Source: Plasmopara viticola (Eukaryota > Oomycota > Peronosporomycetes > Peronosporales > Peronosporaceae). Taken from it: a stretch of 64,000 nt of DNA. A program made the position numbers and the translations under genes. Under the pieces are notes generated by a model. It was not told the DNA's origin. It was given only the letters and a program-made list of their open reading frames with translations, and searched no databases. This document shows, in pieces, positions 597-47,080 of the stretch. The first letter of the stretch is position 1. Every line of letters begins with the position of its first letter. The stretch spans positions 1,426,001 through 1,490,000 of the forward strand of contig MBPM02000005.1 of NCBI GenBank assembly GCA_001695595.3, given 5' to 3'.

Positions 597-1367
597 ATGC
601 TTCGCGCTACTGTCGTCACTGCCATCGCTTTCGTTGCTTTCAAGGACACTTCGGTCGTCCATGCTCAAGATGATTCAAAACCAATGACATCGTCGGAGCT
701 CAAAGTTGGCGACTATTTCAAACCCAGTGGGGACCAAGTGTCGGGCGTGGTCGACAACAATGCTCCATTCCGTCGTGCTCCATGCCCCGGTTTCAACGTG
801 CTCGCCAACCACGGATATCTATCGCGCGACGGCCAGAACATTGAAAAAGCGGCGCTGGCCGCTGTCTTCAAGAATGTTTACAACGTTGCCGAGGAGTGGA
901 CGAACGCGCAACTTGGTCGTTTCCCAGACGTCTTTAACCTCGACTTTGTCAGTCGAAACGACCGAGATGCGTCGTTCGCGCGCGATGATCGCTACTTTGG
1001 TCGCGATCCAGCTGAAGTGAACGTGACCCTCGCCCAAAACTTTCTCGACCGTGCGGACGCCGATGGAAAGATCACGCTGGCCACCGTTGCCCATGCGCGC
1101 ATGGACTATGGGGCCATGTGCAAGGCCAGTAACCCAGAGTGCAACTTTAACGTCACGGTCCAGGCGACGGCGTTCCGTCAGGCGGCTCTGTTGCTGACGG
1201 TCTTTGGTCAGACGGACTACATCTTGGCTGAGCACGCAAAGTCGTTTATGGTCGACGAAAAGTTTCCAAACGACTTTGTGAAGTCCGAGGTTTCCATGAC
1301 GACCGCGTCTTTGAACACGACAATCAAGCGACTCGTCGAAGCGGCCAATGTTACGGCACTCATGTAG
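597..1367 (+). CDS. Secreted heme-thiolate peroxidase-like protein (chloroperoxidase/peroxygenase family), copy 1
   Basis: This is an intronless 256-residue protein. Residues 1-23 form a signal peptide with a likely cleavage after VHA, so the enzyme should be extracellular. Residues 57-85 hold the family signature, with Pro62-Cys63-Pro64 (Cys63 would be the proximal heme-iron ligand) followed by a conserved FNVLANHGYLSRDG block. In this family an acidic distal motif, EHD or EGD, lies about 60 residues later. Here the aligned residues are Asp122-Arg123-Asp124, followed by ASFARDD. NPEC near 179-182, the Cys175/Cys182 pair and a DEKFP stretch at 220-224 match the family's C-terminal half, where the catalytic Glu of the ERLP-like motif would be Glu221. 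Sequons occur at Asn142, 185, 240 and 251. The family oxidises or halogenates organic substrates with hydrogen peroxide. Activity and substrate are unknown because the distal motif is altered. The gene converges on the 16-Cys gene 370 bases downstream. Confidence 0.92.
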   Translation: MLRATVVTAIAFVAFKDTSVVHAQDDSKPMTSSELKVGDYFKPSGDQVSGVVDNNAPFRRAPCPGFNVLANHGYLSRDGQNIEKAALAAVFKNVYNVAEEWTNAQLGRFPDVFNLDFVSRNDRDASFARDDRYFGRDPAEVNVTLAQNFLDRADADGKITLATVAHARMDYGAMCKASNPECNFNVTVQATAFRQAALLLTVFGQTDYILAEHAKSFMVDEKFPNDFVKSEVSMTTASLNTTIKRLVEAANVTALM

Positions 1368-1737
1368 AGAGAGTTGCATCCTAAATATGTTGCTTTTTTA
1401 CTTCTTTGTTTCTTAAAGTTGCTAGAAAAGTATGTAACTGAAACGCAAAGACGTGTTGCCGATGTAGCGCAAGAAAAGCAATGGAATCTATTGAAAGCAA
1501 CTCAAGCACATGCTTACGGCGCTAGACGAGTTGTGTGTGTACTGATTCTATAAAAGCACCTACAGTTTTTTCAGGCCTTCTTTGAGAAGGGTACTGAAAA
1601 AACACTATTACAATACACAGGGATACAATCTATGTACCTCTTAGAGCAATCGAAGCCTAGCATAAACTTAAAGTGCTGGAACTTTTCAGGCTATGTTTGT
1701 CAACCGTATCCATCGCTGGTCTCAATCAACTCGACGC
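1368..1737. other. Convergent intergenic spacer of cassette 1
   Basis: This spacer lies between the stop codons of the peroxidase-like gene (+) and the 16-Cys gene (-). It must contain both 3' ends. The only distinct structure is the hairpin at 1565-1603. Confidence 0.7.
1565..1603. terminator. Hairpin in convergent spacer, possible shared 3'-end structure
   Basis: A ten-base arm, gttttttcag (1565-1574), is complementary to ctgaaaaaac (1594-1603). A nested arm, ccttct (1576-1581), pairs with agaagg (1585-1590). The T-run on one strand and A-run on the other would serve transcripts from either side. A role in 3'-end formation or as an antisense barrier is inference, and no similar hairpin is seen in the spacer of cassette 2. 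Confidence 0.35.
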
Positions 1738-2301
1738 TCACGAAAAGTAAGGTTTCTGTCCACACTCCACTCCACCTTGCTGGAGATAATGGCAGTATTC
1801 GTCCTCGGGACACGCCGCGGTCCCGTTACTACAACACGTCGCTCCGTTGGCATCGTCCACTGCATCAGACGGTGCACAAACGCAGTTTTCGCTTGGTCCG
1901 TGCAGACAGAGACACGAAAACTCTCTCTTGCAGACTGGCGGATCCCCCATCTTCCTGTTGAGCTCTGCTGCCGGGTCGCACGTGGCCCACGGCGCAACAG
2001 CCGTCTCTTCGATCAAAAATGGATTGTCCTGCATCGTCTTAGGATCATAAATCAAACACGATGGCGGTTTGGCGAACATTTCCTGGCCAGATTCCATTCT
2101 GCAAACAAAGTTCTTGCTAGCGCACATTGGAAGAGTGTGGCCGAGATAGTCGCACTCGTCTCCATCTGCTACGACGTGAACAAAGTACTTGACGTTAGGC
2201 TGAGTGACGGGATTTTGACAGACGGCTGCTTTATTCTTAGGAGCAGCCGATGGTGAGGCTGCTAGACTCGATGCTACAGCTACGAGGGTTAGTAGCTGCA
2301 T
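1738..2301 (-). CDS. Secreted 16-cysteine protein, copy 1
   Basis: This is an intronless 187-residue protein. The start at 2301 is preferred over an in-frame upstream ATG at 2355 because it opens directly into a signal peptide (MQLLTLVAVASSLAA) and gives exactly the length of the paralogue at 13927. The mature part contains 16 cysteines, all conserved in the paralogue, which suggests up to eight disulfides and an extracellular location. The middle block, DPKTMQDNPFLIEETAVAPW, is almost invariant between copies and has no cysteine. The C-terminal half has the C-x-C pairs FSCLC and CVC, a CC pair, and a closing CHYLQQGGVECG block. I do not recognise the family. An apoplastic effector, inhibitor or structural wall protein would all be possible. 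It lies tail-to-tail with the peroxidase-like gene. Confidence 0.85.
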   Translation of the reverse strand: MQLLTLVAVASSLAASPSAAPKNKAAVCQNPVTQPNVKYFVHVVADGDECDYLGHTLPMCASKNFVCRMESGQEMFAKPPSCLIYDPKTMQDNPFLIEETAVAPWATCDPAAELNRKMGDPPVCKREFSCLCLHGPSENCVCAPSDAVDDANGATCCSNGTAACPEDEYCHYLQQGGVECGQKPYFS

Positions 2302-2356
2302 CGTCTCGTGTGAAGTTTCAGGTATGAAGAGTTCGTGTTTGGGTCGTCTGTGCATA

Positions 2357-2366
2357 CCGGTATCGG
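2357..2366 (-). promoter_or_regulatory. Conserved palindromic motif upstream of 16-Cys gene copy 1
   Basis: On the minus strand the bases are ccgataccgg, starting exactly 65 bases before the ATG at 2301. The other 16-Cys gene has ccgatatcgg at the identical distance, while the rest of the two 5' flanks has diverged. It is probably a transcription-factor site, by inference. Confidence 0.5.
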
Positions 2367-3675
2367 TATCACAAATCGTAAGGTTAATCTAAGTCAAAAC
2401 TCGAATTTGCATTAAACATTAAACTTATGTAAACTTTGTCCAGATTATTCTTTATATCGATCTGGGAAAACAACGAGGAGACCACGTTGCATCCCTTCAC
2501 TCATCAGCTACTTCGCCCCTATCACGCTTTGGCACGAGGGTCGGCAAACTTTTGCCGTGGCGGCGCATGACTAGCGTTGAAATGAGCAACGCGTCGAACA
2601 TAGCGATACTATTTATGATAGCAAATCGTTTGGCAAATATCTCTACAGTCATAATCCACTTCTCTTAGTAACATTCGGCCGGCGCAGTCAAGCATAATTC
2701 TGTAAAAACTTTGATGGCCAAAAACGAATTTGCACTTTTGCACGATGCAACTACTAGGCACAGGAATGGTATCGCGCAGTGTATCGATGGTCTCGAGCAT
2801 TGCGAGCAGTTTCGAACGACTCGCTTTCCCGTATTGCCTAAACCACAGTTTCTATGACTAGATGAAAAGATTTGCAGCACTTCGTGAGTATCACATCTAA
2901 GTAATTGGTAAAGATTAACATAGGTTTACGTGGTAGTGCTTGATTTCAGACTTTCACACCCACCTGTCGCAGGACGTGTCAATATCTTTGCTTTAATGTC
3001 AGCAGCAGCAATGATTCGTGCCTTGCATGATCAAGCACTTGACTCATGGATACACCAGAGATGTTACGACATTGTAGTCAATCCTCGTGATACCAAAAAC
3101 ACTAATTGGAGAATTGAATGAAAGTGTCGGGGTGATCAGAGCAGCAGTGGAGCAAAGGTTTCAACACTTGCCCTACCTCTTCGAAAACGACCATGAATGA
3201 AACGAAATTTTCAGCAAGAGAGTCCACGACCTAAATGAACTCCATATCATCTCCGAGTTCGACGACGAGTTTGCAAAGGATGGTACGGGGTCTTCTAAGT
3301 AATCACGACGTTTGCATGACGTTGTGAGCAATAATTAAAGTTTTCACGCTGTCGTTGGCAGAGACGGAATCAAGCAAAGCGTGATGCCTGCTGTTAACGA
3401 CGACTGTATTGAGAAAGAAGAGCCAATTTGACGTACTTTGGCGAGCTTCACTACGAAACAATAAATTGTGTCAAGCCAATAAAATGTCTATTACAACGGT
3501 AATTACCGAAGCTTTACCAATACTTCAAGCTCAAATTATGCGTCTCACAATGGCGTCATAGCGTTCGATGGGTCGATGAAAGGTGCCTTCATAACAAGTG
3601 CTCTTATGCAATAAGATAGGTCTAGGAAGTGACCTTTGCTGTGAGTTTATTAACTCGTTCTCTTTAATGCTTGCG
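2367..3675. other. Non-coding stretch
   Basis: I see no supportable gene. A GC-rich patch near 2515-2610 stands out from the AT-rich surroundings and may be a worn repeat. The short ORFs here lack signal peptides, domains and sensible promoters. Confidence 0.5.
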
Positions 3676-4235
3676 TCAGTAGTAACCTCGTTCACTGCCA
3701 CTGCAAGCACCATGACCTCTCGTCCTCCAAATTGTATAGACAACATTCAATGCACCAGTAACGAGAGCGACAATCCATCCATTGTGCTTGGCTACAAATT
3801 TCAGTGCCTGTTCCTTCCTACTCGGTATCTGCAACAAAAAGACATGAGTCGACTCTCTATCCACACTCCATACGACGAAAATGTGTACATTGCACGAATC
3901 CTCTCATGGAAACTTATCCTCACCTTGTACTTTAATCGAAGTGGTTTGTCAGCCGTCCATCTAGCTGCATCAGCCGCCGTCACACGCTGATGCTGCGCCA
4001 AATTCTCCTCTTCAAAGCCACGAAAACTTGCGTGTTTGAACTTTGGGTCTTTAAAAGCTACAGTCACCAATTTGCGCAGAGTTGTACCGACTGGAACTTT
4101 CACTAGCTGGGCAATGCCATTGTAGTCGCGCACATATACAAGGACCGTTTCCGGTTCGTCGATCGAAGTCATTGGGCTGATTGATAGGGTATGAGATGTA
4201 CGATGTGTTGCTTCAGTAGCGCCATACGTCGCCAT
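3676..4235 (-). CDS. Two-exon gene: small protein with possible ubiquitin-like body and C-terminal membrane segment
   Basis: The proposed exons are 4235-3924 and 3828-3676, separated by a 95-base intron (3923-3829) with donor GTGAGG and acceptor TTGCAG, phase 0. This gives 154 residues. A start at the ATG at 4172, giving 133 residues, is also possible. Residues 30-104 (VLVYVRDYNGIAQLVKVPVG and what follows) alternate strands and turns like a ubiquitin-like fold. That is an impression, not a family match, and there is no LFLAK motif of crinkler effectors. Exon 2 encodes a basic stretch and then a hydrophobic segment (WIVALVTGALNVVYTIW, about residues 122-138), possibly a tail anchor. The splice model is supported by a decayed inverted copy just upstream in which similarity resumes at the equivalent of exon 2. 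The donor is not the ideal GTRNGT. The function is unknown. Confidence 0.55.
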
Positions 4236-4598
4236 GTCTTGGTGGAGCAATTTGAATGTTCTATAATAAATTCTCCGTTCTTTCTTCAAAGACGCACTGT
4301 GAAGTATGATATCTCTTTCGTTAAACTAGTATTAAACTGTTACGATATTAGTTTTTATGCAGCCTACAGTAATACAATTAGTTGACACAAGATAAGTCAA
4401 GCAAGTCAAACAATTGAATAAACTATTAGTTGTACAAGACACTTATGTAATTTCTCAAATGGTAGATATTATGTCATTAAAGGATATATATTTAAGCAAA
4501 GAATTTTAGAATTCATTTCCGGTTGCTTAACCAAGACACCACGTAAGTCTCGAGAGGTTTCTCTTTCGATCAGCCCGCAAACATAGTCAAAGTATTTT

Positions 4599-5090
4599 CG
4601 ACCGACTTAGAGAGTACGATTTTTGTGTATGTGCGCGACTATAATGGCATCGCCAAGCTAGTGAAAGCTCCAGTCGGTATAACTCTGCGCAAATTGGTGA
4701 CTGTGGCATTCAAAGACATAAAGTTCAAAAACGCAAATTAAATTGGCTTTGAAGGTTGCAATCTGTTGCGGCATCAATTTGTGACGATAGCTGATGTAAA
4801 TAGATGGACGATTGACAATCCACTCAAATTAGAGCACGAGGTGAGGACAAATTTCCGGATCAGGATTTGTGCAATGTACTTATTAACGTCGTATGTAGTT
4901 TGGATAGAAAGTCGAATCATATCTTAATCTCTGATTATTGCAGAAATCGAGTTAGGAGGAACATGCATGAATAGTTTTAGTCACGCGTAATAAATGGATC
5001 GTTGCTCTCGTCACTGGGGCTGCAAATGCTGTGTATACAACAGGGACAACGAGTGGTCATGCCAGTCCTTGCTGAGTGAAGCGAAAAGAC
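4599..5090 (+). pseudogene. Inverted, decayed copy of the two-exon gene
   Basis: Read on the plus strand, 4612-4840 translates to a close relative of exon 1 of the gene at 3676-4235 (it keeps VYVRDYNGIA and TLRKLVTVAFKD). It carries an in-frame TAA at 4739-4741, and GTA stands where the internal ATG of the parent lies. The intron equivalent is 4841-4943, which still begins gtgagg and ends cag. The exon 2 equivalent follows to about 5090 and keeps the WIVALVTGA block among frameshifts. Similarity also reaches upstream (accaagaca in both flanks). The two copies are head-to-head. Confidence 0.75.
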
Positions 5091-8000
5091 TAGTTGCAGC
5101 GGTAGCGAGTGATATTAGATGGTACGGACGTAATGACTAACAAAAAAGAGTTGATCTTGTATGAAAAACAAACACGAACTATTTATGACTGATGCTCATG
5201 GACACTACCGGTAAGAAAAGTTGGAATACGCCATGGCTTGGCTGTGAGTTGATTTCCTACCGTCACAAAGCTTTTGCGTTCGTGACAAATGTGACCTTAA
5301 TTCAAATGTTCGACCATCATTTAATAATTTTCACGCACGCTCGTTACAAACTTAAGTGCACCACATCTAACAAGCAGTCCAACTTTCATCATTATACCAT
5401 CGCGAGCCAAAGTGTTTGCCAGAATGCTGGAGTCGGGCTGAGCGTTAACGTTGTAGCTGTAATTTTTACCGGCAAATTGTTTGAGATCTTTAGTTCAGTA
5501 GTCACATCTAGAATAATGTACGTGATCAATCACTTGGCGAAATAACATGAGCCATTGTTCCGTCTTAAAGCTCGCTGGACAGGGTCTCCGATATTTTTAT
5601 AGTCATCAGCAGCAGCTAAAAAATATTTTTACATCCCTTGAGAAGAGAATGAGGTTGTTAAATTTTATAACCACAAAGTCAGCACAACGATTCCACAACG
5701 CTGGCGGACGGCATGCAAAAGTCGAGCCCGTATCGTTCTCTGTAAACTCGTCATTATACCGTTGTGGCAAATTTCGTGATCTTTGTTTCTTTTTGCTCCA
5801 ATTCTTTTTCTAAGCTTGATGGTTCTTCGTATTGATATCACCGCTTTGACAGGCTGAGCGATTATCTTGACCACTTTGTATGCATCTAGTATTTTGTTAG
5901 CTTTAGGTATGCGCTAGTGTATAGAGACAATCAAGCACTCAGGAATTGCTATCGATACGCTAGCTAAGCACTTACAAAGCTAACGCGAAACATCTTTGAG
6001 CAATTCAGGCAAGATCGCCCTGTGCTCTCTCATCAATCGCTTTATTTTCAGATTTGAGCAGCCATGATCATGAGTCTTACCATTTGCAATAAACGCGCGT
6101 CTGAAGGCAATCTAACACTGTTTCAACAGAACCTTGTCACTTCGTCCACGTCTGCGACATTGGCTTTTCGGAAGGAATGATTTACATTAGCCAAGACTGC
6201 TTACAGCAAGGGTAAACACTTTGAATATGGTAGGTGTAGAGAATTAGGATCCAGCGAAAAAGTAATATATGGTCTGACGACTGCAGCTCAGTACATTAGC
6301 AGAACATTTAAGATATCTATGCTACAAAGAATAATTTTATATGTGTGAAAGTAATGTAGGTCTTGACAGTTAGTCCGAATCAAACTTTTGAATCAGAGGG
6401 GTAGTCAGTCGTATTATATTTAGCTATAGAACGACGGTCCGAGATATGAACTCAATTTTTTTTCTTGACAACGACTACGAAAGTCTGCACTGGTTATCGA
6501 TATAAACCTGAGTGTTATAAACAAATTCTCTGAAAGGATGGAGCTGTATACTTATCGGTGATTAAGCAGACAATCTTTGATTGCTCTAGGACATTTAGTT
6601 CCATAAGGGGCCAGAGCGATCAAGACCTTGCAGAAGCATGCTTGAGCTTTAAGAACGTTATGTTAAAGCGTCAAAGCACAAGATTAAAAAGACGTCTGCG
6701 CAAGAAAAAATCATTTAAGAAGGGTGTTCCACTAAGCCGAGGCCACTGGCGATAAGCGCGAATTTCTTTAAAGGAAAGGTAGGGTGAAAGTCTTGTTCCG
6801 AGTAGTAGAAGTCGATATGACAATGAAGTCTTTGTTGTTGCCTTCAGAGCAGCGAAAAGTGGCTCTGATCGTATCAAAGCCATGTGGGCGGGCACGTAAT
6901 CTGTATTTGCATGCAATGCATTGGCTGGGGCGGCGTCCTTTGAAATAAGTGTCTCTGTGAGAATTTTGATCGCGTACACTAGTTGTGCAAGAGTTGCTGC
7001 TCTTATAATGTAGAGAGCATACAATCCAAGCAAAAAATGTGAGCGAGTATAATGCAAAAAAAATGGTTGGAGCAGGAGCGGATATCAAAGCACCTATATC
7101 CCGTCAAGATTAGCACTTCCACACGATTTGCGAATTAAAAAAGATGAGGCTTTATGGCGATTTGTTAAGTGTTGCTGCTATTTGCCATAACCTAGTAATA
7201 AAATATGTTGACCCTGCTGATCGAAAGGTCATAACTCATTTTTGGAAGCAACATGCTAGCTCGCAGTCTTTTGGCCGCACGTTGGAGAATCCCTCTGTTC
7301 CTGGGATCCCAGCACCTGCCGGTGCACCAATTTCTCTATTTCATGCAAATTTAAGGTCATGGTATTTCATCGAGTGAGTTTAAATTTTTAGCTTCTTAAA
7401 ATTTTATAAAATATTTGAAGCTTTTGAAAAATAGTGAAGGTTTTGGCTGATCAGACTGGGTGCAAATCGGTTTTGTCTTTAGGCTTCTTACGATGCCGTA
7501 CAAAATCCATTAGCCAATGTCGATGCGGTGCGAAAAGCACGCATATAGCTGCCGCTAAAATTTGGCTCTATTCAGGCTATGCTTTTTGCACGCCGCGTGG
7601 TGTAGCCTTGAAGACTTCTCACGGCACGCAGAACAGGTGAGAGAACGGAAGAAGACTATGGTGTACATTTTTAAGTAATGCTTATCCAAAATGATCTCTT
7701 TATTCTCATATATTTCTTAGATAGAGAGAATAAACATTTTATACAGACAAAAACTTGCATCTACCATCGCCTACTGCGATGGTGATCTGAGTCAATAACA
7801 TCATCCGTGGAAAAGTGAAAGGTATGTCGTCTCTAGCTTCACTTTTTTTTTCAACTGTTGCAGGATCTGACAAGCCCTTAATTTTGGAAGGCGTGCATAA
7901 ACATTCATGGTCTTCCAGAATGCGACCGCTGACTATTTCTGTTCCTTCGGGGTCAAGCTGTGCGATGAATCGCAATCTTAAGACTTATAGCAGTATTATT

Positions 8001-11000
8001 TAATTGTACCCACCAAGTTGCGTATGCACTCTTTTTACTCTGTAAGCTAGACAGGACTGCACAATTTTCGGTATCCTAGAGTTAGAAACTGGTGGTACAC
8101 TATTTTTGCCCGCAAGCCTAAGGCTTCTGTCAACGGGAAACCATCCCTCACGCTTAATGTAAACGTAATTAATAAAAGACAAATAGGCGCACCCTTGACT
8201 GTTGTCAAACAAGGCGGTATTTGTCATAGCAATGACATAATGCTGAGAATCGAGAAGAAACGGATTACCGGTTGGTTGCTTCATTTTGACTGATCAAGCC
8301 AAAACTCGAGAAGGTCGCTTGGTCATCAACAGGTGACACTGCGCCATCGTCGGTCTCTATGTCTAAGGCTGCGCCAGCAACAAATGATGCATCTTAATTC
8401 AAAAGTACGTCTACCACACTTGCCCGTGTCATGGGCTGTAGATTTGAAAGAGCTCACCCATCATTAAGTCGCTTAGGTACGGAAGGATCTTTCACTCTAC
8501 CGTGACGAAGAACGTGCATTTATGCTCATCCCTTGCCTGATGGTCTACATACAACACCTTCCCGTCTTTGACATAAGGAGGAGCTGCGCGAGTACTCCAA
8601 TGTGTACTTACACCTGCTAGAGTGCGAAGAAGTCTTGAGCTAATGAAAAAACGCTGTTCGAACAGACCGTGCAACTCAAGATTACGGCTAGACAAATCCT
8701 CGGACTTACAGTCCATGCGAAGGCCTTGGGCAGAAAGGCTTATGACTTTTGAGGACAAAGACTCAGCTCTAACTGCTTATTCAATGAGGACACCCGATTC
8801 GGGTACCAGGAGCTAGTGAGGAAACAGTGAGCAAGGGGCTTCATGAAATATGTACTGCCAAATGTCACCAACTTATGAGGTATATGAAAAACCTACTGAA
8901 CAAAAACTACATGTCCGATGCAAGCTGTGGTGAAAAGCAGTAAATTTACTTATGCGTGCACCAAAAAGTTCTTTGTGGACTATTTCTTGCGTGGCATTCA
9001 AAAATACCACATAAATTTTAGTCCACCACGATTAAGCGGTGGATGCGCGCCCTCTCTCAACATTGCATTAGATTCTGCGATACTATTTTATTTGTCGTCA
9101 CAAGCAGCTTGAAGACAAGAGTGATCTGTATTACAGGGCAATTCTTGGGCATTCCCTCGTACTGTCGCCACCACGGTACAATAAAGAGTCTAGCTACGGG
9201 TTGCGTAAGTCTCCAGGGCATACTAACCCAATAACTAACTAAGTTAGACGAAGTGTTCCACATCCAAGAGCTTCAAATCTAGATTTATCGCTTGGTGGAT
9301 CAGACACAACTCACCTTTCAAGCTTCAGCCTGATACTAAGTCAGTAATCGAGTGACTCATAACGCGCAGTCAAAGCAACAAGCTTTAATACAAAATGCCA
9401 TTGCTTTTTTTAAAAGCAGGTTTCAAGCAGTCTCGCTAAGCCATTACAGCAGCACCCGCAAGTTCAGTAGGTGGAATAAGCACGCCACTTTGCAACTACA
9501 AAATGGTGCCCATGAGAGTTTTTTGTGATTCACAATGCACTTTGCACGAAAGTTTCGACTTTCTTGGCTGTCAAGAAATGCCAAAGAAGTAAGGTTTCGA
9601 CTTGGCCTTGGGCCTACTTCATGTGGAGCTAAAGATCTTGTGTGATCAAGTGTACATGCCTGAGATTGCTCTCAAAATCAGCCCTGGCGGTCAGCTGCAG
9701 CATTTTTTATCTACCCCAAACTTTTGGTGCTTTTCAATAAAACGAAAATGTTGAGGCATAACGCAAAAACTTCACTGGCCATCCATTTGCCGATGTATCA
9801 GCATAAATAGTTTGAAATCCGGCAGGAGTATTTCTTTGTAGTAATCTTCAAATTTGGCTAGCTGGCCGTTTAAAATCACATGCCTATGGACGCATTATGA
9901 GGCTAAATTCCTGATAATCAAAAAGGTCGATGGTTTACGCTGACTTATGGCCGTGAGACATACCCTATATGCCTAAGAATACTTTAAATAGGCAAATATG
10001 AGTTTTCACTCTCGTACTTGCATCCAAATGTCTTTTTCGTCTGGGGTGGATACAAACGCATCCCTTATCTTGCGAGTTATATTCAGCCGCCTTTTACAAA
10101 GTCGAATAACCATTTCCAAAAAAAAATCAATATATAAGAGACTTGAATGGTTACGATATTTAAAGCCTCTCTTGTTGTTATTGGGAGAGTCATACGCCAT
10201 CCAAAGCGTAAACAAAACGCTAAGGTGGCTTAGACTATTTAAAAAAAACGGTTTAAAAAATGTAGACACGTAAAACGCAACATTGGGTACAAACTCAATC
10301 GTAGAAAGATTCTGGCCTATCTTTGTGATGACTCAGCGCACACGCTACACAACGCAGTTAATTTCTTAGCAGATGGTTGACCCCGTCCGTAAAATATTCT
10401 GTCTGTGGACGGTCTGCTGTAGTCACAAACAAATATGTTCTCAACAGTGGAAGCACCGAATGCCAAAATGTAGAGACAAATTGTGGGTCTTTAATTGGCA
10501 CCATCGTATGGCTTCAATTAACTATATTTATAGAAAGTACTTTCCAGTAATACTGGATTGGACGGCACGCGAACACCACTATGCCCGTATTGCCTTTCAT
10601 CACCGGCAAGCAAAGACAAAGTAGAGTCTTATGAACTTTGACAGTTTGTCGATATCGGTAGATTCCGTGGAGGAGCCGATGAGTTTGACCTATGGCAGGG
10701 TTCGCAGGTCATCACCTACTCTGTACGTGTACATGTGAGGCCAACATTACATTGCGAAAAACGAAAAGCTGTTTTTTTATCTCAACTACCACTAATTGGA
10801 GCATCATGTGCCTTCAGGCTCACTTAATCACAAGTGACTCGTCACTCTCCGCTTGATTTTGAGCTCAAAGCTCGGCAATGAGTGTGGAAGTCTCACGTGT
10901 ACATCATGTCAATTTCTGCCTTTACAGCGAGAGAGTCATCGATGCGCTACTCTGCTCTCGTGGTAGTGCTCAGTATTTGTTGAAAAAGTAGAAGTGCCTC

Positions 11001-13861
11001 ATTCCTCAGTCTGGCTAAGCATCAAGTATACATCTCATCTAAGTATTTTGTTCATAGAGAATGTACGAAATCGCTTAAATTATCGGAAGCTCGGAGCCAA
11101 GGCGCAATGTACCCTGCCTTGGTGGCTGATACTTACACAGAAAAGTTTGTGTCTTTCAAAGAACCACCTCTGAGATCTGATTCGAGTTTGAATTTGCCGA
11201 AACCTCACTCAGTAGCTTTGAGCTTTTTACAGGCTCAACAGTTTTGACACCTGTGGCAACTTCATCTATTGAGTGCTCTTTCCGCGACACAATGGTGTCA
11301 ATTACCCTATCAATAAGGTCTCTTTGTCAACTACGGGGTCCCTTCAAAATTCTAAAGACTAATCCTTTTTGCTTCCTCATCCATTTCTTACGGAGCTGTT
11401 ACCTTTATTCGAAATTTTGTTGCACAAAGTTGGTAGTTCACTCGCAAAGCTATGTTTTCTGCTATTGTTGGCGTCTCTGGCAACCCGTGCTGCAAGCAGA
11501 ACGTATCACCTACAAGTGAAGCAAGCTGTACCTCATCATATGTATCTCGAATGCGTAACCACCCGGGCTTCCTTCCAAACATTTTCTACGCACAGAAAAA
11601 AATGACTAACCAAAGCCGTATAGCTAAAAGCAATATTTTTTGCAGCGAGCCTACAATTCTCCAGCGCTGCCTGTGAAAATATGGCGTGAACTTCGCAAAT
11701 ATGTCTATGATTTAGAAGCAATGACTGCTTCCAGAATTGAGCTGATCAAATTCATCTAGTACAACTACTAAAGGTTACGCTATATCTATACATATTGTTC
11801 TGTATCATGACACGAGTAATTATGCCGGTTGCAAGCAATCAGTGGCAAGGTAAGGCCATCGGCCGAATGCTCAAAGTCGCTATGCGCTGGGGGAAGACAC
11901 TGTGATAAATTCAGAGATCAAAACGGCTCGGTGTGTAATTTCAGTAAGTTACTTCCCAAAACGTACCAGTCAAAAGTGTAGGCTGATCCATTATTGAGTA
12001 GAATTCTTTGTAAAGCTAAGATGACTGTACTTATACCTGACACCCGCCTCGTATTTGGCTCGAATTTAGGTAGCAAACGTGATCAAATTGCTCTGCACGA
12101 TGAGGTGCATCATCAATGGACTTGAGGTTACCCAACAAAGCATCCACTTCTTTAGCTGTGGTAAAAGAGGACACATAATCTGATTCGGTCTTAAAAAAAG
12201 GTCCTTAGTCTTCATCAATGCCATTCAAGAGTTGTTGGTGGACTTTACAGCCGGTAGACTGCTTGTCACTAATAGAAATGGGGCAGCTTGAAAGGTAAGA
12301 GCGAAGCTCTCAAGGTGAGTGTGTGGCTTATATACAAAACACGACCTCGATATTGAGAGCTTGACAGCTTCGAAGAAGAAATTATAGCCGGCGGACTTCT
12401 TGCTTTGCTCACGAATGAACAACCTATTTCAAGAGTTGACGATATTCGGCGCGTCGTAATCATTCTTGCGCCAGAGAAAAATGCCGTACCATTACGCGTT
12501 TCAGTTAATTAAACCAGTACGTACTGTATCCATCGTTTGAGGTCATCAGAGGCTAACACGTCTTTCGAGCAGTGCGAGCTGCTCGTTTGACTGCAAAGAA
12601 TAAGGGGCTTGCAAGGACTCATGTAGTCAGTCTACCCTTTCGGGCGTTAGGTTTAATGTGGAGTATTAGTTTGCACATAGAGAAGTCGAGCGAAAAAATG
12701 CGGTGAGGGAACGTTCACTGTTTCCGGTTCCAAGGATTTGACATTCAAACTAAATTGCGCTTTTTGCATATACTGATTACTTTAACACACTGAGTGCCGC
12801 TTTTACCCTCGTGTACTCATATTAATCAAACCTACTATTCAGGTAATCCCTTATAAAATGAATCCTCATACCAAGCTTTCGGTATTAATACGGAAAAAGT
12901 GCCTGACATGCACCAGAAGCCCCCATTCTCTTAAGACTCCTTCAAAAAGAAAGCCAACTTTTGCCACGAAAGCTCGGATATATGTAACAGCTCATTACAG
13001 CAACGTTGGTGACATCGCTTACGTGGACAAGTCCTTTCCGTGGATAACGCTACGGTATTTCTTGTCTTTACAGGACACGGTCGATGAGTTTCGCGATAAG
13101 ATCATCATTATTTAAGGTGGGTCCCCAATTTAGCTATTTAGACAACATCACATGGTAGTTTATACGTTCCCTTGCAGCCTTAGAAGGCGAAGAATCAGCC
13201 GAGTTTCCACCAGAGTGCTCAAAGCACTCCTTATCGCCTCTATCACTTAAGTTGGAGGTGTCTGTGGATATTCGGTGAGGAAATCAAAACAGACGCGTTT
13301 TCCATCGTGGCGGCGTTAAAAGTTTCTTCAAATCTTTTTTGCCGGAAAAACCGCTTTGGCGAGAACTCCACTTTTGCCTCGTCGCCTGAGGCGCCAAGGT
13401 AGACGCAGCCCAATATCTGAAGCAACCTTCATGGTGTGTCGCTTTGTCAGCGGTAGATCAACCGGTGGACTGGCAGCATTCTTTGCCGTATGTTTGGTCA
13501 TCGTTTTGATTAAAGTTAAGCCTTTGCATAACTCGTGATTGATACTCGACTTTTTACATGATGATGTGTAATCCAAGCTTTGTCCAAATGATGCGATCTT
13601 CGTGCAAGATAAGAAAAGGAGAGGGGCAACAAGCCGAGTATACTTCCACACTCAAAGGTGGCGAGGACCTTAACTCTTTTAAATTTGTGTGAAAATTAAA
13701 ATTATACATGTGCGTGTTCTAAGCCACTTCTTGGCAATGCAAACCAGCTCTTGGAACATATACCCAATAAGTCGCTTCACCATCATCAAAAGAGCATCTG
13801 ATATATATTTGAAGTAGAAGAATTGCTGTACACAAATAGCACAAATTTTAAACTATCAAAG
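5091..13861. other. Long gene-poor stretch
   Basis: I see no gene I can support in about 8.8 kb. The longest ATG-initiated ORFs (for example 8000-8284 minus, 94 codons, and 12858-13115 plus, 85 codons) have no signal peptide, domain or paralogue that I recognise. A GC-richer patch at 13330-13460 is open in two minus frames and may be a worn coding remnant. Most of the stretch is AT-rich DNA with frequent stops, as expected of decayed transposons. Confidence 0.45.
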
Positions 13862-13871
13862 CCGATATCGG
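13862..13871 (+). promoter_or_regulatory. Conserved palindromic motif upstream of 16-Cys gene copy 2
   Basis: The perfect palindrome ccgatatcgg starts 65 bases before the ATG at 13927. It matches, in sequence and exact spacing, the motif before copy 1 (one base different). Confidence 0.5.
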
Positions 13872-13884
13872 TTTCTATAGAATC

Positions 13885-13894
13885 GCTCCAATTT
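13885..13894 (+). promoter_or_regulatory. Inr-like element of 16-Cys gene copy 2
   Basis: The bases gctccaattt match the 3' half of the oomycete Inr/FPR consensus (YYNCAWTTT). They end 32 bases before the ATG, a plausible transcription start. The upstream half of the consensus is not matched. Confidence 0.35.
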
Positions 13895-13926
13895 GCTACA
13901 ACTTAATTAGTCAGTACGCACTCAAG

Positions 13927-14490
13927 ATGCAAATACTCGCCATCGTCGCAGTAGCATCGAGTTTAGCGGCGACGCAGTTAGCTGCATCAAAGAATGAAGC
14001 AAACGTCTGTCGGGTTCCCGTCACCCCGCCCTATGTCAAGTCCTTTGTTCACGTCGTAGCAGATGGGGACGAGTGCGACTATTTTGACAAAACTCTTCCC
14101 ATGTGCGCTGGCAAAAATCATGTCTGCAGAATGGAATCTGGCCAGGAAATGTTTGCCAAAGCTCCATCTTGTTTGATATATGATCCTCCTACGATGCAAG
14201 ATAATCCATTTCTGATCGAGGAGACGGCTGTTGCGCCTTGGGAAAAATGCGACCCGGTAGCGGAGCTCAACAGGAAGATTGGCGATCCGCCAGTTTGCAA
14301 GAGGGGATTTTCGTGTCTCTGTTTGAAAGGAGCAGGTGAAGACTGCGTTTGTGCACCGCCTGATGCAGTGGACGATGCCAACGGAGCCACGTGTTGTTTT
14401 GAAGGCTCCGCATCGTGTCCTGAGGACAAGTACTGCCATTATCTTCAGCAAGGTGGAGTGGAGTGTGGACAGAAACCTTATTTTTCGTGA
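13927..14490 (+). CDS. Secreted 16-cysteine protein, copy 2
   Basis: This is an intronless 187-residue protein of the same length as copy 1, about 80% identical by eye. The signal peptide covers roughly residues 1-20 (MQILAIVAVASSLAATQLAA). All 16 cysteines are conserved in position. The region of most change is the first 25 mature residues and the stretch before the CC pair, while the QDNPFLIEETAVAPW block and the closing CHYLQQGGVECGQKPYFS are unchanged. This pattern fits selection to keep a folded extracellular protein. Tail-to-tail with the peroxidase-like gene at 14770-15537, it forms the mirror image of cassette 1. Family and function are not recognised. Confidence 0.9.
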   Translation: MQILAIVAVASSLAATQLAASKNEANVCRVPVTPPYVKSFVHVVADGDECDYFDKTLPMCAGKNHVCRMESGQEMFAKAPSCLIYDPPTMQDNPFLIEETAVAPWEKCDPVAELNRKIGDPPVCKRGFSCLCLKGAGEDCVCAPPDAVDDANGATCCFEGSASCPEDKYCHYLQQGGVECGQKPYFS

Positions 14491-14769
14491 GAGTGGAGTT
14501 TGTCGACATCAGCGATAAATGCTGTGCGCCCTTAAGTTGCCCTTGTGAATAATCGAGGACACAAAGTGATGCTGCTAGAAGTAAAGGAAACGAGAATGAC
14601 ACGTTGTTAGGGTAGCATTAGCGGTAACGCAACTGTATTTTTACGTAATTGCTCCACACCACGTAGCCTTATTGTTACGGTTCTCATACTCTATTTTCGT
14701 TCTTTGAAAAAAGGGGCAATCCGTTGTTTCGTATTAACGTTTCGTTTGCAGAACAAAGTCTTATCATCA
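14491..14769. other. Convergent intergenic spacer of cassette 2
   Basis: The 279 bases between the two stop codons hold both 3' ends. I find no clear match to the 370-base spacer of cassette 1, including its hairpin, so non-coding DNA has diverged much further than the coding parts. Confidence 0.6.
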
Positions 14770-15537
14770 CTACATGAGGGCCGTAACATTGGCCACCTCG
14801 ACGAGTTTGTGGAACGTCGTGTTTAAAGCCGCGATCGTCACGGGAACCTCTGATTTCACAAAGTCGCCTGGGATCCTTTCTTCGACCATAAACGACTCTG
14901 CGTGAGCAGCCGAGATGTAGTCCGCCTTTCCAAAGACCGTCAGCAACAGAGCCGCCTGACGGAAAGCCGTCGCCTCGACCGTGACGTTAAAGTTGCACTG
15001 TGGGTTACTGGCCTTGCACATGGCCGCAAAGTCCATGCGGGCATGGGCAACGGTGGCCAGCGTGATCTTTCCATCGGCGTCCGCGCGGTCGAGAAAGTTC
15101 TGAGCGAGGGTCACGTTTACTTCGGCCGGGTCGCGACCAAAGTAGCGGTCAGCACGCGCGAACGACGCATCACGATCGCTTCGGCTGATAAAGTCGAGGT
15201 TGAAGACGTCCGGCAACCGATTGAGTTGCGCTTGCGTCCATTCCTCGGCAACGTTGTAAACATTCTTAAAGACAGCGGCCAGCGACGCTTTTTCAATATT
15301 TTTGCCATTGCGTGATAAATGGCCGTGGTTGGCGAGCGTGTTTAACCCGGGACAAGGCGAACGGTGGTATTGAGCGTTGTTGTCGACAATGCCCGAAACT
15401 TGGTTCCCACTCGGCCGGTAATAGTCCCCGACCTTGAGCTCCACAGGCATGGCCGACGATTGTTTCAGATTCATAAATCCGTGGACGCCATTGAAAGCAA
15501 CGAGCGCGATGGCAGTGGCGACGGCAGTGCGAACCAT
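14770..15537 (-). CDS. Secreted heme-thiolate peroxidase-like protein, copy 2
   Basis: This is a 255-residue protein. The frame stays open to 15822, but I start at 15537. That ATG opens into a signal peptide (MVRTAVATAIALVAFNGVHG), gives the same length as the other copies and lies 41 bases from an Inr-like element. The upstream 95 codons have no counterpart. Pro61-Cys62-Pro63 is intact and followed by a LANHGHLSRNG block. The distal motif is again Asp-Arg-Asp within RSDRDASFARADRYFG. The C-terminal VEERIP resembles the canonical ERLP motif of heme-thiolate peroxidases more closely than copy 1 does. The NPQC pair and several sequons are kept. It is the closest relative of copy 1 in the window. 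Its convergent partner is the 16-Cys gene. Confidence 0.92.
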   Translation of the reverse strand: MVRTAVATAIALVAFNGVHGFMNLKQSSAMPVELKVGDYYRPSGNQVSGIVDNNAQYHRSPCPGLNTLANHGHLSRNGKNIEKASLAAVFKNVYNVAEEWTQAQLNRLPDVFNLDFISRSDRDASFARADRYFGRDPAEVNVTLAQNFLDRADADGKITLATVAHARMDFAAMCKASNPQCNFNVTVEATAFRQAALLLTVFGKADYISAAHAESFMVEERIPGDFVKSEVPVTIAALNTTFHKLVEVANVTALM

Positions 15538-25210: not shown

Positions 25211-25963
25211 TTACATGGCCGCGTCCACCAGCCTGTTGTATGTCTCGTTTAGTGATGCGATCGTCACTGGAGTCGCGGACTTGACAAAGTCACTGGGGAA
25301 TTTCTCGTCGACTAGAAAGGCCTTTGCATGGTCAGCAGAGATAAAATCGGTTTTACCGAGAATCGAAAGCAACAGGGCCGCTTGACGGAAGGCCGTTTGC
25401 CTCACAGTCGCATCAAAGTTGCACTCGGGGTTAATGGCCTCACACATGGCCGCAAAGTCAACACGCGCGTTCGCCACCGCAGCCAAAGTGATTTTTCCCT
25501 CGGAGTCTGCGCGGTTGAGAAAGTTGCGAGCGAGCGTCAAGTTCACGTCCGCCGGATCGCGACCGAAAAAGCGATCGTCGCGCACAAATGAGGCATCGCG
25601 GTCATTTCGACTCAGAAAATCAAGGTCAAAGACGTCCGGCAGTCGACTGCTTTGAGCAACCGTCCATTCCTCTGCAACATTGAACAAGCTCATGAACACA
25701 GCGACCAGCGACGCTTTTTCGATATCCTGGCCGTTGCGTGGGAGATACCCGTAGTTAGCAAGGGCGTTGAACGCGGGACAAGGTGAACGACGGAATGGAG
25801 CAGTGTTGTTGACAACGCCTGACACTAGGGCACCAAAAGGCTTGAAAAAATCGCCAACGTTTAGCCCTTCAGGCATCTCACATGCAATGGGTTTTTCTAC
25901 GCCATGGGCATGGGCACCATTGAGAGTGAAAGCGATGGCAGTAACTATGATGGTGCAAAGCAT
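25211..25963 (-). CDS. Secreted heme-thiolate peroxidase-like protein, copy 3
   Basis: This is a 250-residue intronless protein with a signal peptide at residues 1-19 (MLCTIIVTAIAFTLNGAHA). Pro61-Cys62-Pro63 is intact, but the following block reads ANYGYLPRNG, with Tyr for the otherwise conserved His. The distal motif is again Asp-Arg-Asp in NDRDASFVRDD, so the substitution predates the duplications. The NPEC region and VDEKFP stretch are present. It is more divergent from copies 1 and 2 than those are from each other, with an extra cysteine at residue 28. It stands alone, with no 16-Cys partner. A good Inr/FPR match lies 29 bases upstream. The family role is peroxide-dependent oxidation outside the cell; the substrate is unknown. 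Confidence 0.91.
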   Translation of the reverse strand: MLCTIIVTAIAFTLNGAHAHGVEKPIACEMPEGLNVGDFFKPFGALVSGVVNNTAPFRRSPCPAFNALANYGYLPRNGQDIEKASLVAVFMSLFNVAEEWTVAQSSRLPDVFDLDFLSRNDRDASFVRDDRFFGRDPADVNLTLARNFLNRADSEGKITLAAVANARVDFAAMCEAINPECNFDATVRQTAFRQAALLLSILGKTDFISADHAKAFLVDEKFPSDFVKSATPVTIASLNETYNRLVDAAM

Positions 25964-46681: not shown

Positions 46682-47080
46682 AGTTGATATTTAAATATTA
46701 GTTATATTATGTAAAATCACGTCACTCAAAACAATACATATATACATACCCAAGAGTCATGCAAATGCGTATACAAAGGAAAGACGACGTAGAGGAAGGC
46801 GCATTTCGATAACTTGTTCAGTGCTGCTTTAATTGACATAAAAATATTGCTTTCTTTGACGGAATTGCTCCTTCTATCATTGGGTAAAAACAGGGGGAAC
46901 CGGCAGTTTACGAAAGAGGGGTACCGGATGGGTAATGCTTTCTATTTATTGGTTGAAAAAACAGGGTGTTCATCAAAAAAAGCTAAATTGCTCCCATTGA
47001 TAGAATGAACTAATCTCATTGGCTAAAATCGAGGGGTACCGGCAGTTTACCAAAAGGGTACCAGCAGTTTAATGATTCCC
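46682..47080 (-). repeat. Right terminal inverted repeat of the Mutator-like element
   Basis: This is the inverted counterpart of 45259-45653, including both 138-base-spaced sub-repeats. Small indels separate the arms. Confidence 0.88.

What the first reader, a model, noticed from the sequence alone, without database searches (positions are those of the whole stretch)
597..15537. A convergent two-gene cassette (heme-thiolate peroxidase-like plus 16-Cys secreted protein) duplicated as an inverted unit
At 597-2301 the order is peroxidase-like (+), 16-Cys (-). At 13927-15537 it is 16-Cys (+), peroxidase-like (-), which is the exact mirror image. Both partners are predicted to be secreted, both copies are intact, and all 16 cysteines and the enzyme motifs are conserved while the spacers have diverged. 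Keeping a pair together through duplication, with non-coding DNA free to drift, suggests a functional link: for example, the cysteine-rich protein could be a partner, substrate, stabiliser or co-deployed factor of the enzyme. I know of no described system of this kind.
Basis: partly seen in the sequence, partly recalled or inferred. Interest (0 to 1): 0.85.

Follow-up and report, generated by a model that had tools for sequence, protein, structure and literature searches.

The report
Duplicated pair of secreted-protein genes
In the grapevine downy mildew genome two neighbouring genes for probably secreted proteins were copied together as a mirror image, and the peroxidase-like one has lost residues that such enzymes normally need, so it may have taken on a new role; that the two proteins work together is not shown.

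Summary
The mirror-image arrangement is real: HTP-A(+)/CRP-A(-) at 597-2301 and CRP-B(+)/HTP-B(-) at 13927-15537, all four frames intact. The genome fits Plasmopara viticola. Both gene pairs duplicated after the split from P. halstedii at similar synonymous divergence (dS 0.43 and 0.53), and are under purifying selection. One inverted segmental duplication explains this; an assembly artefact does not.

First, the enzyme motifs are not all conserved. Of PCP-EHD-E only PCP is intact: the catalytic Glu is Gln, EHD reads DRD and three residues are deleted. All five members of this downy-mildew clade share this; none of the 125 other aligned homologues that cover the EHD site has the deletion. So they are probably not classical peroxygenases, yet they are selectively maintained. 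Second, 16 cysteines is not the family state: relatives have 14.

The inferred functional link is not supported. A third HTP 10 kb away has no CRP, and Phytophthora species carry the CRP with no DRD-type HTP found. Two genes a few hundred bases apart stay together by default. Bremia has both on contigs of the same 5-Mb length, so old linkage is possible. The remodelled active site is the more interesting finding.

The parts
597..1367 (+). HTP-A, probably secreted heme-thiolate-peroxidase-like protein (256 aa), remodelled active site (DRD; Gln for the catalytic Glu)
   Evidence: (Pfam PF01328 E 1.5e-36)
1738..2301 (-). CRP-A, cysteine-rich, probably secreted protein, 187 aa, 16 Cys (14 of the family plus 2)
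13927..14490 (+). CRP-B, cysteine-rich, probably secreted protein, 187 aa, 16 Cys; 81% aa identity to CRP-A
14770..15537 (-). HTP-B, probably secreted heme-thiolate-peroxidase-like protein (255 aa): Cys62 kept, Asp121-Arg122-Asp123 for EHD, Gln194 for the catalytic Glu
   Evidence: (E 2.3e-39)
25211..25963 (-). HTP-C, third, older paralogue (250 aa; dS to A 1.17, to B 1.34), no CRP found beside it
1368..1737 (.). spacer of unit A, 370 bp, not alignable to the spacer of unit B
14491..14769 (.). spacer of unit B, 279 bp

Best explanation
The feature is a local cluster of genes for probably secreted proteins in Plasmopara viticola. One segment carrying an HTP gene and its convergent neighbour CRP was duplicated once in inverted orientation after the split from P. 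halstedii (supported by order, dS and trees). Both products stayed under purifying selection (shown). The pair stayed together because the genes are a few hundred bases apart, not because the proteins must work together (inferred). The HTP belongs to a downy-mildew clade that keeps the heme-ligand Cys and, by prediction, the fold, but has replaced the acid-base Glu by Gln and EHD by DRD with a three-residue deletion (shown in sequence). I infer that it no longer runs the ordinary peroxygenase/peroxidase cycle efficiently and serves as a secreted heme-thiolate pseudoenzyme, or as an enzyme with altered chemistry, in the host apoplast. The CRP is most likely an independent disulfide-stabilised apoplastic protein of the Phytophthora/downy-mildew lineage (inferred).
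Against: Non-coding DNA is more diverged than dS predicts: in simulation the spacer is detected in every run at K of 0.6 or less, yet nothing is seen. The segment may therefore be older than dS suggests, or the spacers were replaced. No clear gene-conversion tract was found, though the longest identical run in HTP is borderline (P 0.058). In Bremia both families lie on a contig of the same length, 5,039,839, which leaves conserved linkage open. Secretion is judged by eye. No expression or biochemical data. Bacterial UPOs without the Mg site, one with Lys in place of the distal His, are active (PMC13394420, passages), so changes in EHD alone do not prove inactivity. The HTP-B model loses confidence just after the changed motif (residues 129-134 under pLDDT 50).
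Confidence: 0.6

Rival explanations
1. Functional cassette: the CRP is a dedicated partner, stabiliser or inhibitor of the HTP, and the pair is kept together by selection.
For: Both kept and under purifying selection in both copies. Both families on a Bremia contig of the same length, 5,039,839. The extra CRP cysteines are shared by both P. viticola copies.
Against: No CRP found near HTP-C. CRP occurs in Phytophthora without a DRD-type HTP found. In P. sojae, P. oleae, P. boehmeriae and P. megakarya the listed CRP and HTP proteins carry different longest-contig lengths; only the longest contig is shown, some contigs are short, and those HTPs are not DRD-type, so this is weak. A few hundred bases of spacing needs no selection to persist.
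Confidence: 0.15
2. The DRD-type HTPs are working peroxidases with a new distal acid-base arrangement (Asp121-Arg122 in place of His-Glu), comparable in idea to the Asp-Arg pair of dye-decolorising peroxidases (recalled).
For: Asp121 and Arg122 are invariant in 5 of 5 clade members. Arg serves as charge stabiliser in long UPOs, and Lys or Arg replaces His in some bacterial UPOs (PMC6417270, PMC13394420). The deletion could reposition Asp.
Against: The acid-base Glu position is Gln. In ordinary HTPs the residue at the Asp121 position binds Mg and is not the acid-base catalyst (PMC13394420). The model has no heme and no coordinates were available to measure distances.
Confidence: 0.2
3. Assembly or haplotype artefact: the two units are alleles or a misassembly.
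For: Inverted repeats are a known assembly hazard (general knowledge).
Against: 82-83% nucleotide identity, dS about 0.4-0.5, unalignable spacers and flanks; PacBio assembly at 185x (PMC9130769).
Confidence: 0.02

Closest known systems
Short heme-thiolate peroxidases / unspecific peroxygenases (MroUPO, HspUPO, CviUPO) and chloroperoxidase; Pfam PF01328; the 'oomycetous peroxygenase family' of PMC9138132 (passages)
   Different: EHD changed to DRD, three residues deleted before it, acid-base Glu changed to Gln
RALPH effectors of powdery mildew (CSEP0064/BEC1054), RNase-like secreted pseudoenzymes (PMC6464244, passages read)
   Same: Works-like analogy: a secreted enzyme fold that lost catalytic residues and was kept and multiplied in an obligate biotroph
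   Different: Different fold and organism; an effector role was tested there and is untested here
Unnamed 14-Cys secreted protein family of Phytophthora and downy mildews (UniRef 'Cysteine-rich protein'; P. halstedii PHALS_07518 labelled 'RxLR-like')
   Same: CRP-A and CRP-B are members; CRP-B is 53-73% identical to the 12 others aligned
   Different: Two extra cysteines (Cys28, Cys156 of CRP-B) and two copies

Membership tests
Heme-thiolate peroxidase superfamily (PF01328) | Sequence profile above the curated cut-off | tested here: met
   124-136 bits against a cut-off of 26.9 for HTP-A, B and C
Heme-thiolate peroxidase superfamily (PF01328) | CPO/UPO fold | tested here: met
UPO/CPO (functional motif PCP-EHD-E) | PCP heme-ligand Cys | tested here: met
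   Cys in 5 of 5
UPO/CPO (functional motif PCP-EHD-E) | EHD (or EGD) motif | tested here: not met
   DRD in 4, DRH in 1 of 5
UPO/CPO (functional motif PCP-EHD-E) | Acid-base catalytic Glu (HspUPO Glu180, CPO Glu183) | tested here: not met
   Gln in 5 of 5; Glu in 117 of 126 other rows. The column is Glu in the solved UPOs printed (9iz8, 7zcl, 7znm, 9wa6). That it is HspUPO Glu180 rests on motif order; the 7o1r alignment was not printed
UPO/CPO (functional motif PCP-EHD-E) | H2O2-dependent oxygen transfer | not testable with these tools
   needs enzyme assay
14-Cys secreted protein family | The 14 conserved cysteines | tested here: met
   14 of 14 in CRP-A and CRP-B; 11 of 12 others have all 14, P0015 lacks one; the partial P0017 was left out
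Co-inherited HTP-CRP cassette | Partner always adjacent | tested here: not met
   No CRP hit near HTP-C or the C4 HTP; the CRP-family hits in the genome at E 0.1 are CRP-A, CRP-B and one remote paralogue
Co-inherited HTP-CRP cassette | Adjacency conserved in related genomes | not testable with these tools
   no relative of this genome held; only contig lengths of homologues seen

The most novel reading that the evidence does not exclude
Downy mildews turned a secreted heme-thiolate peroxygenase into a new kind of heme-thiolate protein in steps: first Glu to Gln, shared with P. lilii, P. kernoviae and Nothophytophthora homologues that still read EHD; then EHD to DR(D/H) with a three-residue deletion in the Plasmopara-Bremia lineage. 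The new motifs were then fixed and the gene expanded to three copies in P. viticola. It acts in the apoplast as a heme, peroxide or ligand-binding effector, or with a new Asp-Arg chemistry, and in P. viticola it was co-duplicated with a cysteine-rich protein that gained two cysteines (a possible extra disulfide) and could be its partner.
Probability: 0.3. Interest if true: 0.65.

Novelty: new variant of a known kind. Interest (0 to 1): 0.42.

Why it matters
Oomycetes can hold many peroxygenase genes (eleven UPO genes in P. infestans per PMC8772875, passage), and PMC9138132 (passage) says of the Phytophthora clade that its physiological function has not been addressed. Three of the four HTP genes found in P. 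viticola belong to one clade with a rebuilt active site, and the A/B pair is under purifying selection. That is a sharp, testable case of an enzyme fold reused in obligate biotrophs. It also corrects a tempting inference: joint duplication of close neighbours is not by itself evidence of joint function.

Tried and rejected
Structure of the CRP: AlphaFold with 14 sequences gave mean pLDDT 48, so no fold search was made. PDB sequence search for the CRP: 0 hits at E 1. Pfam for the CRP: only DUF3109 for CRP-A, below cut-off, rejected. IMG/VR scan with the CRP family: 158 pattern matches, none a relative. Gene conversion as the reason for the spacer/CDS contrast: longest identical-codon run not significant (CRP P 0.32, HTP P 0.058), not supported. 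A CRP remnant beside HTP-C: none by tblastn.

Papers: heme-thiolate peroxidase + oomycete, Plasmopara viticola + chloroperoxidase, UPO motif terms, genome size, locus tags, Plasmopara + cysteine-rich + secreted + apoplastic + peroxygenase (0 papers), chloroperoxidase + Glu183 + mutant, pseudoenzyme terms, Phytophthora + peroxygenase + oomycete, downy-mildew secretome terms. No title or abstract start in these listings describes this pair or the DRD change; full texts were not read. Only passages of PMC6417270, PMC13394420, PMC9130769, PMC9144378, PMC6464244, PMC9138132 and PMC8772875 were seen; supplements were not available. PMC9138132 discusses a fungal intracellular HTP with this Glu replaced and asks whether it can work, so change at this position is not unheard of.

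Against the stepwise story: the Q state also occurs in P. oligandrum P0116 (long branch), outside the clade. With the motif columns removed, the forks joining P0098, P0099 and P0102 to the downy-mildew clade fall below support, so a single E-to-Q origin of that group is only the most parsimonious count (2 changes of state in 51 rows).
Full report
What was checked. Peroxidase-like HTP-A (+) and cysteine-rich CRP-A (-) form one convergent pair; CRP-B (+) and HTP-B (-) form its mirror image 11.6 kb away. DNA identity is 82% for the HTPs and 83% for the CRPs, and it stops almost exactly at the start codons: HTP match 596-1370 against CDS 597-1367, CRP match ending at the ATG and running 26 bp past the stop. 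The window lies in a genome of 92,937,831 bases in 358 contigs, matching the Plasmopara viticola INRA_Pvit_2 assembly (92.94 Mb, 358 scaffolds; PMC9130769, passages).

A third HTP (HTP-C, 25211-25963 -) stands alone about 10 kb beyond HTP-B, and a fourth lies on contig C4 with canonical motifs. Across the genome, the CRP query at E 0.1 finds CRP-A, CRP-B and one remote paralogue about 1 kb left of the window (E 0.0086, 31%; 18 Cys); such counts are lower bounds by the tool's own note. No CRP remnant was found by HTP-C.

History. dS is 0.431 for HTP A/B and 0.534 for CRP A/B, with overlapping bootstraps; the difference interval is -0.11 to 0.35. A and B are sisters with P. halstedii outside in the HTP tree (100/96) and in the CRP tree (95/86). 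HTP-C is older (dS 1.17 and 1.34); whether it split off before or after P. halstedii is unresolved (89/30). One inverted duplication of a two-gene segment explains the A/B pairs. dN/dS is 0.34 (0.22-0.48) for HTP and 0.21 (0.12-0.32) for CRP, so both are under purifying selection. One point is unexplained: spacers and upstream regions show no significant similarity (p 0.47, 0.086 and 0.12), although in simulation divergence of 0.6 or less was seen in every run. No clear conversion tract was found. Either synonymous sites are constrained, or the intergenic DNA turned over faster.

The enzyme. Pfam, PDB comparison and the predicted fold make it a short-type heme-thiolate peroxidase. [quoted passage not shown] I aligned 131 homologues: the 11 rows P0003, P0004, P0018-P0026 and the 120 listed of 274 hits. 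Five rows (HTP-A, B, C, P. halstedii P0018, Bremia P0020) form one clade (100/100, stem 0.62 with the motif columns removed). In those five, three residues before EHD are missing, EHD reads DRD (DRH in Bremia), and the late Glu is Gln. Outside the clade Glu of EHD is kept in 124 of 126 (1 Asp, 1 gap), His in 123 of 126 (2 Arg, 1 gap) and the late Glu in 117 of 126; the nine exceptions there are 4 Gln, 2 gaps and 3 other letters, those three in fragments or poorly aligned rows. Three of the four Gln rows (P. kernoviae, P. lilii, Nothophytophthora) fall next to the clade in the full tree and keep EHD, which suggests a stepwise change, but that backbone is weak without the motif columns. Other downy-mildew HTPs, of the C4 type, in P. 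viticola, P. halstedii, Bremia and Peronospora keep EHD and Glu, so the change is of this clade, not of downy-mildew HTPs as such. The new segments D-R-x-A-S-F and T-A-F-R-Q-A-A-L-L-L are invariant in all five rows. This looks like remodelling under constraint, not decay.

The cysteine-rich protein. The family was found in Phytophthora, Plasmopara, Bremia and four sequences without a species name (13 hits). It has 14 conserved cysteines; the 16 of P. viticola come from Cys28 and Cys156, absent in all 12 others aligned. No domain above cut-off, PDB relative or confident model was found.

The proposed link. Joint copying of genes a few hundred bases apart is the default outcome of a segmental duplication. 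Against an obligate partnership: HTP-C without a CRP found; CRP in P. oleae, P. aleatoria, P. sojae, P. megakarya and P. boehmeriae, while the HTP-B search at E 1e-20 (8 hits) found DRD-type proteins only in Plasmopara and Bremia. That search is word-limited, so absence is not proven. For old linkage: Bremia CRP and DRD-type HTP are both recorded on a contig of 5,039,839 bases. For P. halstedii the longest contigs differ (2,729,523 and 254,873), and the CRP is recorded on 4 contigs, so nothing can be concluded.

Verdict. The more novel content is a downy-mildew heme-thiolate clade with a rebuilt active site.

Noticed in passing
window:25211-25963 (-): Third heme-thiolate-peroxidase-like gene, older paralogue, without a CRP neighbour found.
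   Followed up: yes
L009:8356-8997 (-), about 1 kb left of the window: Remote CRP-like, probably secreted protein with 18 Cys (31% identity over part of CRP-B), so the locus may be a small cluster of cysteine-rich genes.
   Followed up: partly
window:3711-4141 and 4623-5061: A second, short-range inverted duplication (440 bp, 77% identity) between the two units, overlapping an ORF at 3801-4289 (-) with no Pfam match.
   Followed up: no
L009:2250-2570 (+): Crinkler effector N-terminal domain (PF20147, E 9.9e-8) about 7.4 kb left of the window.
   Followed up: no
window:45259-45651 and 46684-47080: Inverted repeat, 88% identity over about 400 bp, roughly 1 kb apart; possibly a mobile-element remnant.
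   Followed up: no
window:35085-35681 (-): Reverse-transcriptase-associated zinc-binding fragment (PF13966, E 7e-5, below cut-off): possible retroelement remains.
   Followed up: no
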